Source: Cordylochernes scorpioides
Lineage: Eukaryota > Arthropoda > Arachnida > Pseudoscorpiones > Chernetidae
DNA: 64,000 bases
Assembly (NCBI GenBank): GCA_030710605.1
Contig: CP092881.1
Coordinates: forward strand, 71,229,118-71,293,117
Reading direction: 5' to 3'
The stretch's first letter is position 1. Every line of letters starts with the position of its first letter. The notes beneath the pieces were generated by a model, which did no database searches, was not told the origin of the DNA, and was given only the letters and a program-made list of their open reading frames with translations. A program made the position numbers and the translations under genes. Shown piece after piece: positions 1,050-57,272 of the stretch.

Positions 1050-1222
1050 GTGTGTATATAAAAATGTGAAATTGGAGAGAAACATTTATAAATAATGTAA
1101 AAAAATACAAATGTGAAATTATAATGGAATAAGGTGGATAAACTATGAAAAAGGCATCTCCTTATCGTGCAACTGTTGCATACATACAATCAATTGCATG
1201 ATAAGGAGATGCGCCTTTTTCT
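1050..1222. repeat. Short fold-back of the hammerhead family, core deleted
   Basis: Arms at 1146-1174 and about 1196-1222 (AAAAAGGCATCTCCTTATCG and its inverse) are the outer arms of the larger elements at 28961-29182 and 48533-48811. The upstream 1050-1145 stretch resembles the sequence just outside the arm in those copies (TTACAAATGTGA-like), so the element includes a one-sided extension. The inner arm and the ribozyme are missing. Confidence 0.7.
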
Positions 1223-2990
1223 TAATTCAAAACTAAGTTTCAAACAAAATCAACGTTCAATAAGACAGTTCAATAGAGAGACAGCTATCCACAGTTCATA
1301 AGAACAGGTGCCTCTTCGAGCCAATTTGTGACAAAAACTTCCAGAAATCCGAGAAGAGAGCGGAGACAAAGAATTCTTTGAAGTTCGCCTCGAAGAAAAT
1401 CGGGCCATTTCTGAAATAGAATTTTCCTCGCGCAATCTCCTCGGCCAAATTGAAATAAATTTGCCTCAAGATGGGCGCTCGGAATGGATGGGGACGAGAT
1501 AAAATACTTTCCTAGACAATATCAAAATAGATTCTTCGTCTTCTTAAGAAGGGACTTAGTCAAAGTAGCCGAACCCATTACTTCTTATCAGTCTGAGCTC
1601 CTCTAATCGTCACTTAAACAGATTCCTTGTCACTTCAGAACTGTGCCGGGGAAACATCCCAGTCGCACTTATCTCATGTCATTTAAGTCTGTAGCTATGT
1701 CTACATTTGATTCCTGTTCACCTCTACACAAGTTAACACATATATATCAACATATAATTTGTTGTTGTCTGGGGAATTCCTATATTATAAGATACGAGAC
1801 AATATTTCACAGCAGCACATACTCCTCTGATTGAACGGAATCTATCGACGGAGTGGAGGAAATAACCAAACTATATTTACCTCTATATCAAGTTGTGAGA
1901 GGATGATATTCATATACCATAAGATGCACCTTTCTCTTTATTTCGCATCAGAACGATGCACATGTTTATCACCATAGTAAAATACCTTTGCTAGTGATGA
2001 TCAAGAAAATATTACAAAACCATTTTTGGAAAATTCATATTATATCAAAGACTTTATAAAAAGGAGACAGTTTTCCGAGTGAGCATGTTCTCTAAAATCA
2101 GTTTCAGGCTTAAGTGAGTGACGTGGCTACTGAGCAATCCGACAGTGAAACATGTCCCATATTATAGAGTTGTTACTCCACACAATAATAGCCAGAGTCC
2201 CCACCAATCAGCCAGATAAAAATATCAAGCCGCTAATGGACTCTGAGAGTACTTTATTTTCTTTCAAATTCCTCGTTTGCGGGACCCAGAAAGCCATGCG
2301 GGGGAGTCGTCGAGGAATGTTTCCTCAGAACTATGAAGAAAAAAAAAGTCCCTTCCTATCTTTGGGCCTTCCTGCATGCCCGCCTGCTTTTTATCAAACT
2401 CCGGGCTGCCCAGGCCTGATACCTTTATTACGGTCCTTCGTCTATATCGGTCGGATTAGGGGATGTGGGCTGGTATAGAAAAACCGACGATTCAAACGTT
2501 TTCGACATATTTTATATTACATTTTATTATATTTATATGTGCACCTATCTGTGTGGTTACATTTCTTGATATTAAAAAGGAATATGTTCTTTATTTTATA
2601 ATTTAATATTTAAATCTATATATTATTTTATATGACAAGCAATCCAGGGTAAGTATTTTGTACCATTTTTATTTCTCTAGTTTTTTTGCTTACACCCTCT
2701 TCAACATAAGTAAATAATTATCTGAAAGTTATACTTCTAGGTACTCCTGTTTAAGGGGAGGGGGCATGTTATCACGAAATATAGAGATATAACATTGGTA
2801 CAAGAAACTTAACCCTGGATTATTCATTGGTATTATTAAATTATAAGTCAGGGCACACACGAAAGTTTATAATTAATGTTCTTTATATTTATTTAATGTT
2901 GAGTGATAGATAATCATTGATTTGATATATAAAAGTTGAGCTGAAAACAGAGAAGTGAAAGGATTTAATATAAAAACTCAGAATGTCCTC
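1223..2990. other. Unassigned sequence with a G+C-rich patch
   Basis: Mostly A+T-rich. Positions 2152-2478 contain a 108-codon open frame and are G+C-richer than the flanks, but the predicted peptide has no recognisable domain and unbalanced composition, so it is not called a gene. No RNA gene or clear repeat seen. Confidence 0.3.
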
Positions 2991-24027: not shown

Positions 24028-24182
24028 CAATGTTCTTCAAATTAAAGACACTTCGGCCAGTGAATCTTTTTTTATTGTCTCGACGTTTCGACAAAAATCT
24101 TTTGTCCTCGTCATTTGTCCAAACGTCGAGGCAATAAAAAAGATTTATTAGCCGAAAGTCTCTCCAATTTGAAGAACTATGA
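24028..24182. mobile_element. Fold-back element carrying a Penelope-type hammerhead
   Basis: Arms 24028-24090 and 24115-24181 are inverted (TTCTTCAAATTAAAGAC, CGACGTTT, and their inverses). The loop and adjacent arm hold a hammerhead-like motif on the minus strand, described separately. The compact arm-ribozyme-arm plan resembles the inverted pseudo-LTRs of Penelope-like elements. Confidence 0.65.
24086..24125 (-). ncRNA. Hammerhead-like ribozyme motif, Penelope type
   Basis: Minus strand: TGACGA core with C3 replaced by A, helix II formed by GGACAAAA / TTTTTGTC, then GAAAC, a minimal 2-bp helix III (AC/GU) and a GUC cleavage triplet, then GAGACAATAAA. All catalytic boxes except C3 are present. 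Helix I pairing is weak: the strand before the core, TTTGGACAA, does not match GAGACAA well. Activity is uncertain. Confidence 0.55.
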
Positions 24183-24220
24183 ATGCCGGCTGGCCAGGCA
24201 GCCTCTATCTTTACAATAAG

Positions 24221-25296: not shown

Positions 25297-26512
25297 TTTA
25301 GCTCGCTCCTTCTTCTCTAACTATACTGTAGCTCTATCTACCTATACTTTAGATTCTACTTGTGCTGTATTTAGCTCGCTCCTTCTTCTCTAACTATACT
25401 GTAGCTCTATCTACCTATACTTTAGATTCTACTTGTGCTGTATTTAGCTCGCTCCTTCTTCTCTAACTATACTGTAGCTGTATCTACCTATACTTTAGAT
25501 TCTACTTGTGCTGTATTTAGCTCGCTCCTTCTTCTCTAACTATACTGTAGCTGTATCTACCTATACTTTAGATTCTACTTGTGCTGTATTTAGCTCGCTC
25601 CTTCTTCTCTAACTATACTGTAGCTGTATCTACCTATACTTTAGATTCTACTTGTGCTGTATTTAGCTCGCTCCTTCTTCTCTAACTATACTGAAGCTGT
25701 ATCTACCTATACTTTAGATTCTACTTGTGCTGTATTTAGCTCGCTCCTTCTTCTCTAACTATACTGTAGCTGTATCTACCTATACTTTAGATTCTACTTG
25801 TGCTGTATTTAGCTCGCTCCTTCTTCTCTAACTATACTGTAGCTGTATCTACCTATACTTTAGATTCTACTTGTGCTGTATTTAGCTCGCTCCTTCTTCT
25901 CTAACTATACTGTAGCTGTATCTACCTATACTTTAGATTCTACTTGTGCTGTATTTAGCTCGCTCCTTCTTCTCTAACTATACTGTAGCTGTATCTACCT
26001 ATACTTTAGATTCTACTTGTGCTGTATTTAGCTCGCTCCTTCTTCTCTAACTATACTGTAGCTGTATCTACCTATACTTTAGATTCTACTTGTGCTGTAT
26101 TTAGCTCGCTCCTTCTTCTCTAACTATACTGTAGCTGTATCTACCTATACTTTAGATTCTACTTGTGCTGTATTTAGCTCGCTCCTTCTTCTCTAACTAT
26201 ACTGTAGCTGTATCTACCTATACTTTAGATTCTACTTTTGCTGTATTTAGCTCGCTCCTTCTTCTCTAACTATACTGTAGCTGTATCTACCTATACTTTA
26301 GATTCTACTTGTGCTGTATTTAGCTCGCTCCTTCTTCTCTAACTATACTGTAGCTGTATCTACCTATACTTTAGATTCTACTTGTGCTGTATTTAGCTCG
26401 CTCCTTCTTCTCTAACTATACTGTAGCTGTATCTACCTATACTTTAGATTCTACTTGTGCTGTATTTAGCTCGCTCCTTCTTCTCTAACTATACTGTAGC
26501 TGTGCGCTGTAT
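25297..26512. repeat. 73-bp tandem repeat, about 16.5 nearly identical units
   Basis: GCTCGCTCCTTCTTCTCTAA recurs every 73 bp from 25301 to 26469. Variation is limited to rare single changes (GTAGCTC versus GTAGCTG in the first two units, a GAAGCTG unit, and one TTTTGCTG). Such uniformity indicates very recent expansion or strong homogenisation. Confidence 0.97.
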
Positions 26513-27130
26513 TTATATATACTGTAGCTGTGCTGTATCTACGTATACTGTAGCTGTGCTCAATCCTCCTAGCTTCCTCTGGTTCTTCTCTAATTATACT
26601 GTACCTGCGAGCTGCATCTACCTATACTGTAGCTGTGCTGTATCTACCCATACTGTAGCTGTGCTTTATCTATCTATACTGTAGCTGTGCTTTATCTATC
26701 TATACTGTAGCTGTGCTGTATCTACCCATACTGTAGCTGTGCTTTATCTACCTCGCTTTTTCTGGTTCTTTTATAACTATACTGTATCTTCTACCTGTGC
26801 TGTGTCTACCAATACTGTAGCTGTGCTGTATCTACCTGCTCCTTCTTGTTCTTCTCTAACTATACTGTACCTTTGCCGTATCTACCTATACTGTAGCTGT
26901 GCTGTATCTACCTGCTCCTTCTTGTTATTCTCTAACTATACTGCACCTTTGCCGTATCTACCTATACTGTAGCTGTGATGTAACTAATTATACTGTAATT
27001 TCTACATGTGCTGTATCTACCTTTACTGTAGCTTCTACTCGTGCTGTATTTACCTCGCCCCTGCTATTTCTTCTCTAACCATAATATAGCTATGCTGTAT
27101 CTACCTATACTATAACTTCTTTTTTTACCT
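26513..27130. repeat. Degenerate pyrimidine-rich continuation of the 73-bp array
   Basis: Words TATACTGTAGCTGTGCTGTA and TCTACCTATACTG recur at irregular 25-70 bp spacing, derived from the 73-bp unit. Frames open across it are repeat artefacts. Confidence 0.8.
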
Positions 27131-28225
27131 GTATTACCTCTTCTTGTTTCTACCTATACTCTATTTCTTTTCTACTATCTGTATTTTCATTATTTAAATA
27201 CCCATACTACATCTTTCTGTTCCTTCCTGTACTTCCTATTTTACCTCATGATTTACCTATTCTTTTTAATACCTGTATTTTCTTTTTTTACTATATGTAC
27301 TACCTCTTTCTATTTCTAACTGTACTTCCATTTTTGAATGCCATATTTATTTTTCTTGAGACTATCCGCTCTACCTCTTCTTATTTCTACTTGTAAACCA
27401 TTTAAACTTGTATACTTCTTGTTAGCACGTTTTCTTTTAACTTTCTTCTAGAAAGAACGAGCTGACTCACTTCGATTCAATTCGATTTATTTCAAACAAC
27501 AAAAAAGAATTACACTAAGATTTAATGCAATTTAGTTGTATTTATAACATAAAAGAAAAAAGAGACTATATTAACACAAAAAAAAAGAAGAAAAAAACAA
27601 CAAAAAGAATGATGATAAGTAACAATAAAATTATATGAATATGAATTATAATTAATTAATAAAATACAATAATAATAATTTAAAAAAAACTAGCACTTCT
27701 CTTTTTGTACTACTTGTACTTTCTCTTCCTTGTATCTACTTATACATCCCCTTCTTGTTATTCATATGTAATCATTCTTATTCTTCCTTTAACACTCTCA
27801 TTACTCTTCTTTCTATATCTTTATATCTTTACTGTATTTCCTTTTTTTCTGTACTTTTTATTTGCTCTATTTATTAACAGTTGAACAAACAAGACACACT
27901 ATATCCGATCTGGATAATTGCGCGTGAAACTATTTACAATAATTGTAGTAGAGTAGGTAACAGAATTAACAAAAAGAAAATAAAGAATTAAGAGAAATAG
28001 CAGTGAATAAACAAATACATTAAACAAATATGCAACAACATAAGCAGATAGAAGAAATCGCAAAGTAGTTATTTACAATATGTTGAGCAATGGTGGAAGT
28101 TGATTTAATGAAGTTATCTGTAATAATTAGTATCGTGGAGAGAGAAAGTTGACCAAATTTTATTCTATTCTATCTCTTACAGGCATCGAAGTTACAATAA
28201 TATCAATATAGAGTAAAAAATATAT
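27131..28225. other. Unassigned low-complexity A+T-rich sequence
   Basis: Pyrimidine-rich decay of the array to about 27420, then A-rich low-complexity sequence (27530-27690) and more pyrimidine-rich sequence. No gene recognised. Confidence 0.4.
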
Positions 28226-28960: not shown

Positions 28961-29250
28961 TATTATGAAAAAGGAATCTCCTTATCGTGGAACTGAGAGT
29001 TGCTGATGGCTTGCGCCATCTATTGGAATAAATATCAACTATTCTTGATTAATCATAAATAAGTATTTGGCCAATTCAGGAATAATTAAAAATCAACGAA
29101 AATAGTTGATATTTATTCCGATAGATGGCGCAATCCATCAGCAACTCTCAGTTTCACGATAAGGAGATACCTTTTTCATAATTTATGCACCTTATCCCAG
29201 TACAATATAACATTTTTACTATTTTTTCACAATGCGTGTGTTTTAGTCAT
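28961..29250. mobile_element. Hammerhead-family fold-back, ribozyme deleted
   Basis: Arms 28961-29037 and 29097-29182 match those of the element at 48.5 kb (AAAAAGGAATCTCCTTATCG; GATATTTATTCCGATAGATG). The loop lacks the ~50 nt that hold the hammerhead in the 48.5-kb copy; the junction lies at a TTCT direct repeat. The one-sided tail continues to about 29250 (CACCTTATCCCAGTACAATA) as the inverse of 48450-48535. Confidence 0.85.
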
Positions 29251-47832: not shown

Positions 47833-47925
47833 TTAAAAATAAAGAGAGCATATCCTGACCAGGAGTACATGTGCTTTACAGAACGCAGAGCGCCATCTGG
47901 TGGAACAGAAATCAAGAAAAGCCAT

Positions 47926-47965
47926 CCACGAACACGTTTCGCGCTGTTGGCGCTCGTCAATTCTG
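47926..47965 (-). ncRNA. Decayed hammerhead ribozyme
   Basis: Minus strand: TTGACGA (C3 changed to T), perfect helix II GCGC-CAACA-GCGC with the same loop as the intact copy, GAAA, 2-bp helix III in ACGTGT, GUU triplet, then CGTGG matching helix I 3' strand. The 5' strand of helix I is replaced (CAGAA), so helix I cannot form. The helix II change from GGGC/GCCC to GCGC/GCGC is a paired (compensatory) difference. Confidence 0.75.
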
Positions 47966-48247
47966 AAAAACACATGTGCTCCTGGTCAGGATGTGCATTA
48001 TTTGACTTTAATATATATATAAATGCATTCGTAGTTGAATAATTCGAAGCCCAAGGGACAAAAAAAAATCGAAGTAAAAACGGAAATTTTATTTATAGGG
48101 GCAATTCTAGGGACCAAGATAAATATTAGTATTAAAGACGTCTTCTAATTAAAGAGGTTCGAATTTTTCTAGTTCTACTGTATATTGGTAAATTCGACCG
48201 ATTCCATAACCTCCCTCGTAGGATGTTATGGAATCGAAGCTCTCTCC

Positions 48248-48449: not shown

Positions 48450-48811
48450 TTATTCATCACAAACTATTTTTACAAAATGAAAAATATGAAAAAAATGTTA
48501 CAAATGTGATATTGTACTGGGATAATGTGCATAAATTATGAAAAAGGCATCTCCTTATTGTGCAACTGAAAGTTGCTGATGGCTTTCGCCATCTATCGGA
48601 ATAAATATCAACTATTCTCGTTGCACCACGCTGATGAGGGCCAACAGCCCGAAACGCGTCCGTGGTTAGCTTTTCTTGATTAATCAAGAATGGGTATTTG
48701 ACCAATTCTGGAATAATTAAAAATCAACGAGAATAGTTGATATTTATTCCGATAGATGGCGCAAGCCAACAGCAACTTACAGTTGCACGATAAGGAGATG
48801 CCTTTTTCTTA
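48450..48811. mobile_element. Fold-back element with apparently intact hammerhead
   Basis: Arms 48540-48623 and about 48721-48805 (GGCATCTCCTTATTGTGCAA, GATGGC, ATCGGAATAAATATCAACTA and their inverses) form a ~78-bp, nearly perfect hairpin stem. The ~97-nt loop holds the ribozyme (48625-48670), a TCTTGATTAATCAAGA palindrome and an A-rich stretch. A one-sided tail (48450-48539, AATGTTACAAATGTGATATT) is conserved beside the 1.1- and 29.2-kb relatives. No protein is encoded. Arm-loop-arm plus tail resembles the inverted pseudo-LTR layout reported for Penelope-like elements. Confidence 0.9.
48623..48670 (+). ncRNA. Hammerhead ribozyme, type I, complete core
   Basis: Core box CTGATGA at 48631-48637, helix II G38-C50, G39-C49, G40-C48, C41-G47 (last digits of 486xx) with loop CAACA, GAAA at 48651-48654, helix III A54-U59 and C55-G58 with a two-base loop, C17 equivalent at 48660. 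Helix I pairs ACCACG (48625-48630) with CGTGGT (48661-48666), then continues after a two-base bulge as GC/GC. All invariant residues are present and the predicted cut is after GUC at 48660. The 2-bp helix III is typical of hammerheads in Penelope-like elements and retrozymes, which usually cleave best as dimers. Confidence 0.92.
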
Positions 48812-48997
48812 AAATAATAAATGTAATTTAAATATAAAACTATAATATTTTAGTAATCATTATAGTTTCGTTGAGTAAATTTGGTTCCAATCCCCATATG
48901 CAATGACAAAACAGAAAAATAAGTAACTTATGTTAATTTGCGTGTGGTAAATCGCTGCTAAAATATAAAGTGATCTGTATTTAACACAACTTAAACT

Positions 48998-56838: not shown

Positions 56839-56841
56839 AAT

Positions 56842-56946
56842 TCCGTGGAACCCTTCACGAATTTGTGTATCATCCTTGCGCAATGTCGATGCTGATCTTC
56901 TCTGTATCATTCCAATTTAAGTATGTGTACCGCCGAACAAGCGGGT
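56842..56946 (-). pseudogene. U6 spliceosomal snRNA pseudogene
   Basis: On the minus strand the order is GTTCGGCGGTACACATACTT, AAATTGGAATGATACAGAGA (with the catalytic ACAGAGA box), AGATCAGCATC (AGC triad), TTGCGCAAGGATGATACACA and AATTCGTGAAGGGTTCCAC. This follows U6 over nearly its whole ~105 nt with about a dozen substitutions. The terminal T-run needed for Pol III termination is absent (GGAATTTC instead), and there is no evident TATA about 25 nt upstream. A retro-inserted or decayed copy rather than a working gene is most likely. Confidence 0.9.
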
Positions 56947-57272
56947 GAGTGTGAAGTGTCATGTATGATGTAACGATAAGCAAACTACCCGGTGATGACA
57001 CCAAGCGACAGTTTCACAGAGTCAAAACCATCTTAACAACCCCTCTCAGCAAATAGACCCACACCAGTAAAGAGGCGACGTCAAGTCAAGAGGGAGCGTC
57101 ACCAGTACAAAAGCCCAGAAGAACTTCCCTCCATCCATCTTCCGGGAGATCGCGCGTCCGGCATAAATATTGCAGGCGATTTCCGGCGTGGTCTCCCCCA
57201 ACAGCCGGCAGTAACACAATGGTAGCAGAATATATAAAGTTGCCCTTAAAGTCCATAAACATATTATAAATT
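56947..57272. other. Unassigned sequence
   Basis: 57060-57210 is G+C-richer with no recognised domain in the minus-strand 65-codon frame. Confidence 0.3.

What the first reader, a model, noticed from the sequence alone, without database searches (positions are those of the whole stretch)
48533..48811. Apparently intact type I hammerhead ribozyme in the loop of a fold-back element
Seen: CTGATGA, a 4-bp helix II with CAACA loop, GAAA, a 2-bp helix III, GUC and a 6-bp helix I are all present at 48625-48666, inside a ~97-nt loop closed by a ~78-bp inverted repeat. Known: minimal helix III hammerheads are described in Penelope-like retroelements and retrozymes. Inference: a MITE-sized, non-coding hairpin element that carries a self-cleaving ribozyme, perhaps for processing a circular or multimeric RNA, would be an unusual or undescribed arrangement.
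Basis: partly seen in the sequence, partly recalled or inferred. Interest (0 to 1): 0.92.

Follow-up and report, generated by a model that had tools for sequence, protein, structure and literature searches.

The report
Ribozyme retroelement inserted as inverted pair
The hairpin is one insertion of an abundant 338-base mobile element that carries a self-cutting hammerhead motif; the way its copies lie in the genome suggests that Penelope-type machinery copied it into both strands of the target DNA from two fixed start points.

Summary
In detail: a hammerhead-like motif lies at 48625-48666 in the loop of an inverted repeat (48536-48623 / 48725-48812). It is not a MITE. It is one insertion (about 48490-48812) of a 338-nt non-coding hammerhead element, an animal-type retrozyme; the exact 29-nt core occurs 13,718 times in this 2.6-Gb genome (reversed-pattern control 0) and one array holds 5.65 near-identical monomers. 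The fold-back is an integration product: two cDNAs joined head to head, outer ends at two fixed positions 50 nt apart (B = m151, A = m201). Of 40 two-ended insertions with both ends classified, 37 pair A with B, 3 are B/B, none A/A. A Penelope-like element of the same genome (reverse transcriptase, GIY-YIG, own minimal hammerhead) shows the same rule in 6 of 6 complete fold-backs read by hand. This fits the in vitro Penelope protein that cuts and extends both strands from two start sites (PMC11167929), and bears on an open question: which machinery moves animal retrozymes. Cleavage, circles and dual priming are inferred. The window copy has one ribozyme with a 1-bp helix III capped by palindromic CGCG, so it probably needs a partner; its own target duplication is unclear.

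The parts
48490..48812 (.). whole insertion of the 338-nt element: two head-to-head segments; target duplication unclear (best 6 nt, AAAATA)
48490..48623 (-). first cDNA segment, monomer m198 to m65; outer end is start site A (tail end)
48621..48812 (+). second cDNA segment, monomer m299 through the hammerhead to m152; outer end is start site B; overlaps the first by 3 nt (TTG) at the joint
48490..48536 (-). tail (m198 to m152), present at this end only
48536..48623 (.). left arm of the inverted repeat
48725..48812 (.). right arm of the inverted repeat
48625..48666 (+). hammerhead motif: helix I 48625-48630/48661-48666, core 48631-48637, helix II 48638-48641/48647-48650, GAAA 48651-48654, palindromic CGCG 48655-48658, predicted cleavage after 48660
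28962..29237 (.). second fold-back of the same element in the window (m153 to m70 minus, m10 to m208 plus): ends B and A, hammerhead 5' half missing
1094..1227 (.). third fold-back of the same element (m204 to m120 minus, m119 to m154 plus): ends A and B, no hammerhead
24033..24217 (.). fold-back of the Penelope-like pseudo-LTR (p397 to p318 minus, p336 to p434 plus): ends B and A
47833..48011 (-). fold-back of a second, older hammerhead family; the hammerhead is cut by the joint (5' strand of helix I missing)

Best explanation
One insertion of a non-autonomous hammerhead retroelement (animal-type retrozyme, monomer 338 nt). Inferred cycle: read-through transcripts of tandem copies are cut by hammerheads, probably acting in pairs through the palindromic helix III, and ligated into a circle. 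The protein of a Penelope-like element binds the circle and cuts both target strands about 8-14 bp apart. One free 3' end is extended from start site A (m201), the other from start site B (m151), on either side of a small hairpin in the RNA. Each cDNA can stop early (27 nt in L070) or go round several times (5.65 laps in L058). The two cDNA ends are joined, which leaves a head-to-head inverted repeat between target duplications. Shown by sequence: the monomer, the arrays, the orientation, the fixed ends, the A/B pairing, the duplications, the variants shared between arms. Inferred: cleavage, the circle, the enzyme used, dual priming.
For: 13,718 core matches, control 0; spacing of 338 in an array. 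A/B in 18 of 20 (C1 set) and 19 of 20 (set) two-ended insertions with both ends classified; 0 of 66 insertions with both 5' ends outward; P = 2.9e-5 for 18 of 20 at the end frequencies of one-ended copies. Duplication score 8 or more in 43 of 66 insertions, and in 18 of 18 A/B insertions of the C1 set; mismatched flanks: median 2.55, 95th percentile 7.06. Monomers of one array 99.4-100% alike in L058, loci 94.2% on average. Opposite arms share 12 rare letters in the C1 set, control mean 0.3, maximum 2 in 300. The Penelope-like element has RT (PF00078, E 1.3e-8), GIY-YIG, minimal hammerhead, ends B and A about 35 nt apart, and A/B fold-backs in 6 of 6. Window: 4 of 4 fold-backs of the two elements have one A and one B end. 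Literature: both strands cut and extended, two start sites (PMC11167929).
Against: No significant sequence similarity between the 338-nt element and the Penelope-like pseudo-LTR. Three B/B insertions (L011, L034, L068) and 21 one-ended insertions in the C1 set. Shared rare letters show no signal in the set (3; control mean 0.45, maximum 5) and were seen in only 5 of 15 loci of the C1 set. The window copy's own duplication is unclear. PMC11167929 saw no difference in start site between the strands in vitro, no hammerhead-end reads, and insertion without hammerhead activity. No RNA data were available.
Confidence: 0.75

Rival explanations
1. The second arm arises by snap-back self-priming of one cDNA, or from an antisense template, as proposed for head-to-head Penelope copies of a rotifer (PMC3846280, Discussion passage).
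For: Head-to-head copies; arms share variants; L055 has a palindromic joint m13|m13.
Against: Snap-back should give a palindrome at the joint and copy the first end, tail included; here the outer ends differ (A and B) in 37 of 40 and the joint positions of the arms differ, as in L065 (m143|m242), whose arms are 98-100% alike. An antisense template does not predict a fixed outer end.
Confidence: 0.1
2. The 338-nt element is moved by a LINE, and the inversions are LINE-1-like twin priming.
For: Target duplications and 5' inversions also occur in LINE insertions (general knowledge); filler or short overlaps at joints.
Against: LINE twin priming (recalled) inverts an upstream part from variable internal priming sites and leaves one fixed 3' end; here both outer ends are fixed and the arms cover the same part of the monomer. 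The Penelope-like element has the same paired ends. LINEs of this genome were not examined.
Confidence: 0.06
3. The 338-nt element is not a separate retrozyme but a piece of the pseudo-LTR of a Penelope-like family that I did not find, which multiplies as solo or tandem pseudo-LTRs.
For: Hammerhead with very short helix III as in Penelope-like elements; same end rule; solo pseudo-LTR fold-backs of the found Penelope-like element exist.
Against: The pseudo-LTR of the fetched canonical loci has no significant similarity to the monomer (L087 tested); the L058 array is pure 338-nt repeats. But only six of 146 GIY-YIG matches were fetched there.
Confidence: 0.15
4. One reading: a MITE-like or TIR element with a ribozyme in its loop, which multiplies as a unit.
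For: Size, hairpin shape, many copies with similar arms; joint m65|m299 in L001, L003 and L008, and with the ends exchanged in L006.
Against: 17 of 17 different joints in the C1 set; unlike outer ends; tandem and one-ended copies of the same sequence. The recurring joint comes from a set picked by similarity to this copy, and has a 3-nt overlap.
Confidence: 0.03

Closest known systems
Metazoan non-LTR retrozymes (PMC7229834, abstract and passages; PMC7761336, abstract and two sections)
   Same: Type I hammerhead in short tandem repeats of about 170-400 nt, GC below 50% (here 41%), no coding part, duplications longer than 4 bp, one-pair helix III with palindromic tetraloop as described for axolotl Amex1, highly self-paired circle (circular fold z -6.7)
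   Different: Head-to-head insertions with paired A/B ends are not described in what I read; expression and circles untested here; host unnamed
Penelope-like elements with pseudo-LTR, tail and minimal hammerhead (PMC3846280 passages; PMC11167929 abstract and main text)
   Same: Inverted pseudo-LTRs with a tail on one of them, short target duplications, two start sites that bound the tail, hammerhead near the start sites
   Different: The 338-nt element codes for nothing and shares no significant sequence with the Penelope-like element found here; A-B distance 50 nt against about 35 nt; B lies 151 nt after the cleavage site against 48 nt
LINE-1 twin-priming inversions (recalled, no paper read)
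   Same: Inverted 5' part and target duplication
   Different: Both outer ends fixed here, arms cover the same sequence

Membership tests
Metazoan non-LTR retrozyme | Type I hammerhead motif | tested here: met
   24.1 bits, below gathering; 26.5 bits in 5 of 5 monomers of L058
Metazoan non-LTR retrozyme | Short tandem repeats (about 170-400 nt), non-coding, GC below 50% | tested here: met
   338 nt, 5.65-monomer array; GC 0.41
Metazoan non-LTR retrozyme | Expressed as self-cleaved linear and circular RNA | not testable with these tools
   no RNA data
Penelope-like element (autonomous) | ORF with reverse transcriptase and GIY-YIG endonuclease within the element | tested here: not met
   monomer is non-coding; such an ORF exists elsewhere in the genome (L093 plus L083)
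Penelope-type integration | Inverted segments, 3' ends outward, tail at one end, two start sites, short target duplications | tested here: met
MITE / TIR DNA element | Matching terminal inverted repeats and a common internal structure among copies | tested here: not met
   ends A and B differ; 17 of 17 joints differ in the C1 set
Active hammerhead ribozyme | Self-cleavage after GUC | not testable with these tools
   sequence and two-sided changes only

The most novel reading that the evidence does not exclude
Each insertion begins with one circular RNA held between two Penelope-type reverse transcriptase subunits: one starts at the 3' side of a small RNA hairpin (A), the other at its 5' side (B), each priming from one strand of the same target. 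The fold-back is then the normal product of a paired, rolling-circle, double target-primed reverse transcription, and the same rule governs the autonomous element.
Probability: 0.45. Interest if true: 0.8.

Novelty: new variant of a known kind. Interest (0 to 1): 0.6.

Why it matters
PMC7761336 (section headed 7) says that animal retrozymes show no conserved motif from which the autonomous partner could be deduced. Paired fixed ends shared with a Penelope-like element of the same genome would be such a signature, and can be tested with one protein and one 338-nt RNA. The A/B pairing also offers a concrete alternative to self-priming for the head-to-head structure of Penelope insertions, and arrays that repeat one private variant suggest a circular template.

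Tried and rejected
MITE/TIR reading: ends differ and joints vary. Snap-back and LINE-like twin priming: see rivals. Hammerhead-cleaved linear monomer as the main template: cDNA 5' ends are spread, 1 of 69 lies at m1 (L046), and the L058 array spans the cleavage site. Shared sequence between the 338-nt element and the Penelope-like pseudo-LTR: nothing significant. Alignment A1 of hammerhead sequences put the 3' strand of helix I out of register by one column, so pairs were counted by position in a script. L081 has GIY-YIG before the reverse transcriptase motifs (a Naiad-like order; name recalled) and was not used as the partner. A genome-wide count of head-to-head pairs by a gapped pattern was not accepted.

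Full report
Observation. Rfam gives Hammerhead_HH9 with 24.1 bits, E 0.003, below its gathering score of 52; 5 of 5 hammerheads in the array L058 score 26.5 bits. Helix III is one A-U pair with palindromic CGCG, a form that PMC7229834 (passages) describes for axolotl Amex1, which cleaves poorly as a monomer and well as a dimer.

What it belongs to. The 279-nt query found fold-back relatives on many contigs (40 of 2,454 candidates scored). Longer copies show that the arms continue into a tail, a linker and the next unit. The 29-nt core pattern gave 6,898 + 6,820 exact matches, reversed-pattern control 0. Five matches on C1 lie exactly 338 apart; this array (L058) begins inside the hammerhead, runs 1,911 nt (5.65 monomers) and stops at the tail end. 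I number the monomer from the base after the predicted cleavage site; CTTA ends at m151 and the tail at m201.

Sampling. One search listed 100 of 13,718 places, in order along C1. I read the loci of the first 58 of these 100 (L031-L080). After removing duplicate loci and rows under 84% best identity or 150 nt, 42 insertions remained (C1 set); the loci, which are biased towards copies like the window's, gave 24. The two near-identical L078 copies are both counted, as one-ended; the complex copies L055 and L067 count as one-ended; L068 was split into one unclassified and one B/B insertion, although joined at a wider gap its outer ends are A and B.

Ends. C1 set: 21 of 42 have two outward 3' ends: 18 A/B, 2 B/B (L034, L068), 1 with one end unclassified; the other 21 have one 3' end (14 B, 7 A). 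set: 23 of 24 are two-ended: 19 A/B, 1 B/B (L011), 3 with one end unclassified. None of the 66 has both 5' ends outward. With end frequencies as in one-ended copies, 18 or more of 20 has P = 2.9e-5. By eye, L061, L078 and L079 seem to carry a few bases of the other end, so two-ended insertions may be commoner than counted. Duplication scores: median 7.6 for own flanks, 2.55 for flanks paired at random (95th percentile 7.06, 99th 10.7); a raw score of 8 or more in 43 of 66 insertions, and in 18 of 18 A/B insertions of the C1 set but 13 of 19 of the set. The window copy itself has only a doubtful 6-nt duplication. In the window the three retrozyme fold-backs, the finding included, and one Penelope-like fold-back all have one A and one B end: 4 of 4 (read by hand).

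Templates. Copies within one cDNA are 97.8% alike on average over 36 comparisons, 15 of them in L058; loci differ more, 94.2% over 8,537 comparisons. Non-consensus letters shared between opposite arms: 71 of 145 possible; within one cDNA 81 of 107; random pairs of loci 9%, maximum 15%. With rare letters only and one comparison per locus: C1 set 12 shared, in 5 of 15 loci, control mean 0.3, maximum 2; set 3 shared, in 3 of 16 loci, control mean 0.45, maximum 5, hence no signal there. L065 has arms of about two laps each that are 98-100% alike, yet 94% and 96% like the reference monomer, with the joint m143|m242. That fits one RNA variant copied twice, and not a snap-back. A source array that makes many copies of one variant would give the same sharing, so a single RNA molecule is not proven. 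Joints: 13 of 35 overlap by 1-10 nt, 5 are flush, 17 have 1-18 extra nt.

The partner. GIY-YIG: 146 matches among 150 scored of 17,015 candidates; by eye, 11 pairs of opposite matches within 5 kb all diverge. Six matches were fetched with about 1 kb: in 6 of 6 the frame ends about 70 codons after the domain, and in 5 of 6 a hammerhead with GAAACGUC (3) or GAAACGUU (2) follows about 300 nt later; L082 lacks it. Upstream of one of them (L083) the adjoining 1,500 bases (L093) hold a reverse transcriptase domain in the same frame (388 aa, PF00078, E 1.3e-8), which agrees with the 527-aa open frame; the other five were not checked for it. The pseudo-LTR ends at p397 (B) or near p431-434 (A). Related pseudo-LTR fold-backs, 78-90% like L085, in the retrozyme loci pair A with B in 6 of 6 complete cases (L017, L041, L058, L063, L064, L072; hand-read); L045 has one internal end and L007 has halves far apart, and both were left out; in L017 and L072 a retrozyme insertion lies between the halves. 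The 338-nt monomer shows no significant similarity to the pseudo-LTR of L087. Both have a small hairpin between B and A: AGUACAA..UUGUGCU in the monomer, UGCC..GGCA in the Penelope-like element (by eye).

Ribozyme conservation. Six divergent hammerhead sequences from loci of this genome (two of them close relatives) keep 6, 6, 6, 6, 6 and 5 of 6 inner helix I pairs and 4, 4, 4, 4, 4 and 2 of 4 helix II pairs, with two-sided changes at helix I pairs 1, 2, 3, 4 and 6 and at helix II pair 2. The weakest, from L051, also lacks the GUH. The helix III stretch is a palindrome in 4 of 6 (ACGCGU three times, ACCAUGGU once) and in the Penelope-like element (ACGU). These are sequences met in fetched loci, not a systematic sample.

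Literature. PMC3846280 (passages) describes inverted pseudo-LTRs with a tail optionally on one of them, and prefers self-priming on an antisense template. PMC11167929 (abstract and main text) shows a purified Penelope-like protein that cuts and extends both strands, with two start sites that bound the tail, but no difference in start site between the strands, and insertion that does not need hammerhead activity. PMC7761336 (abstract and two sections) states that no motif tells which element moves animal retrozymes. PMC12910113 (passages) added nothing. Eight searches listed no paper whose title or start of abstract describes an A/B end rule for retrozymes. Subscription papers, among them the first report of hammerheads in Penelope-like elements and a paper on a permuted Penelope clade, could not be read.

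Conclusion. The finding is a real hammerhead motif, probably dependent on a partner, inside an ordinary insertion of a very abundant retrozyme. The hairpin records how it inserted. The paired A/B ends, and their sharing with the Penelope-like element, are the new part as far as the searches above can tell.

Noticed in passing
window 47833-48011 (-): A second hammerhead family (helix II GCGC/GCGC) as a fold-back 480 bases from the finding, with the hammerhead cut at the joint; 4,510 candidates in the genome, 40 scored. Its CCACCAGATGGCGC resembles the CTCF consensus (recalled, untested).
   Followed up: partly
L081 1-6211 (G000:C1:8986400-8993000): A near-perfect inverted repeat of more than 6 kb around an ORF with GIY-YIG before the reverse transcriptase motifs (Naiad-like order, name recalled).
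   Followed up: partly
L048 1120-2042: The minus arm jumps from m278 to m54 and repeats a 115-nt lap twice: template skipping during copying, a small circle, or later duplication.
   Followed up: no
monomer m287-308, C1 set: 12 of 69 cDNA 5' ends lie here, beside a strong predicted hairpin; loci were chosen for the hammerhead core, which favours ends just beyond it.
   Followed up: no
L046 1730: One cDNA ends exactly at m1, the predicted hammerhead cleavage site, as a run-off on a cleaved RNA would.
   Followed up: no
L017 1376-2026; L072 1673-2209: Retrozyme insertions lie between the two halves of Penelope-like fold-backs, near their joint.
   Followed up: no
window 26001-28000: Strong strand asymmetry: GC skew -0.317, AT skew -0.248.
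   Followed up: no
window 56839-56948 (-): U6 spliceosomal RNA match, 74.6 bits.
   Followed up: no
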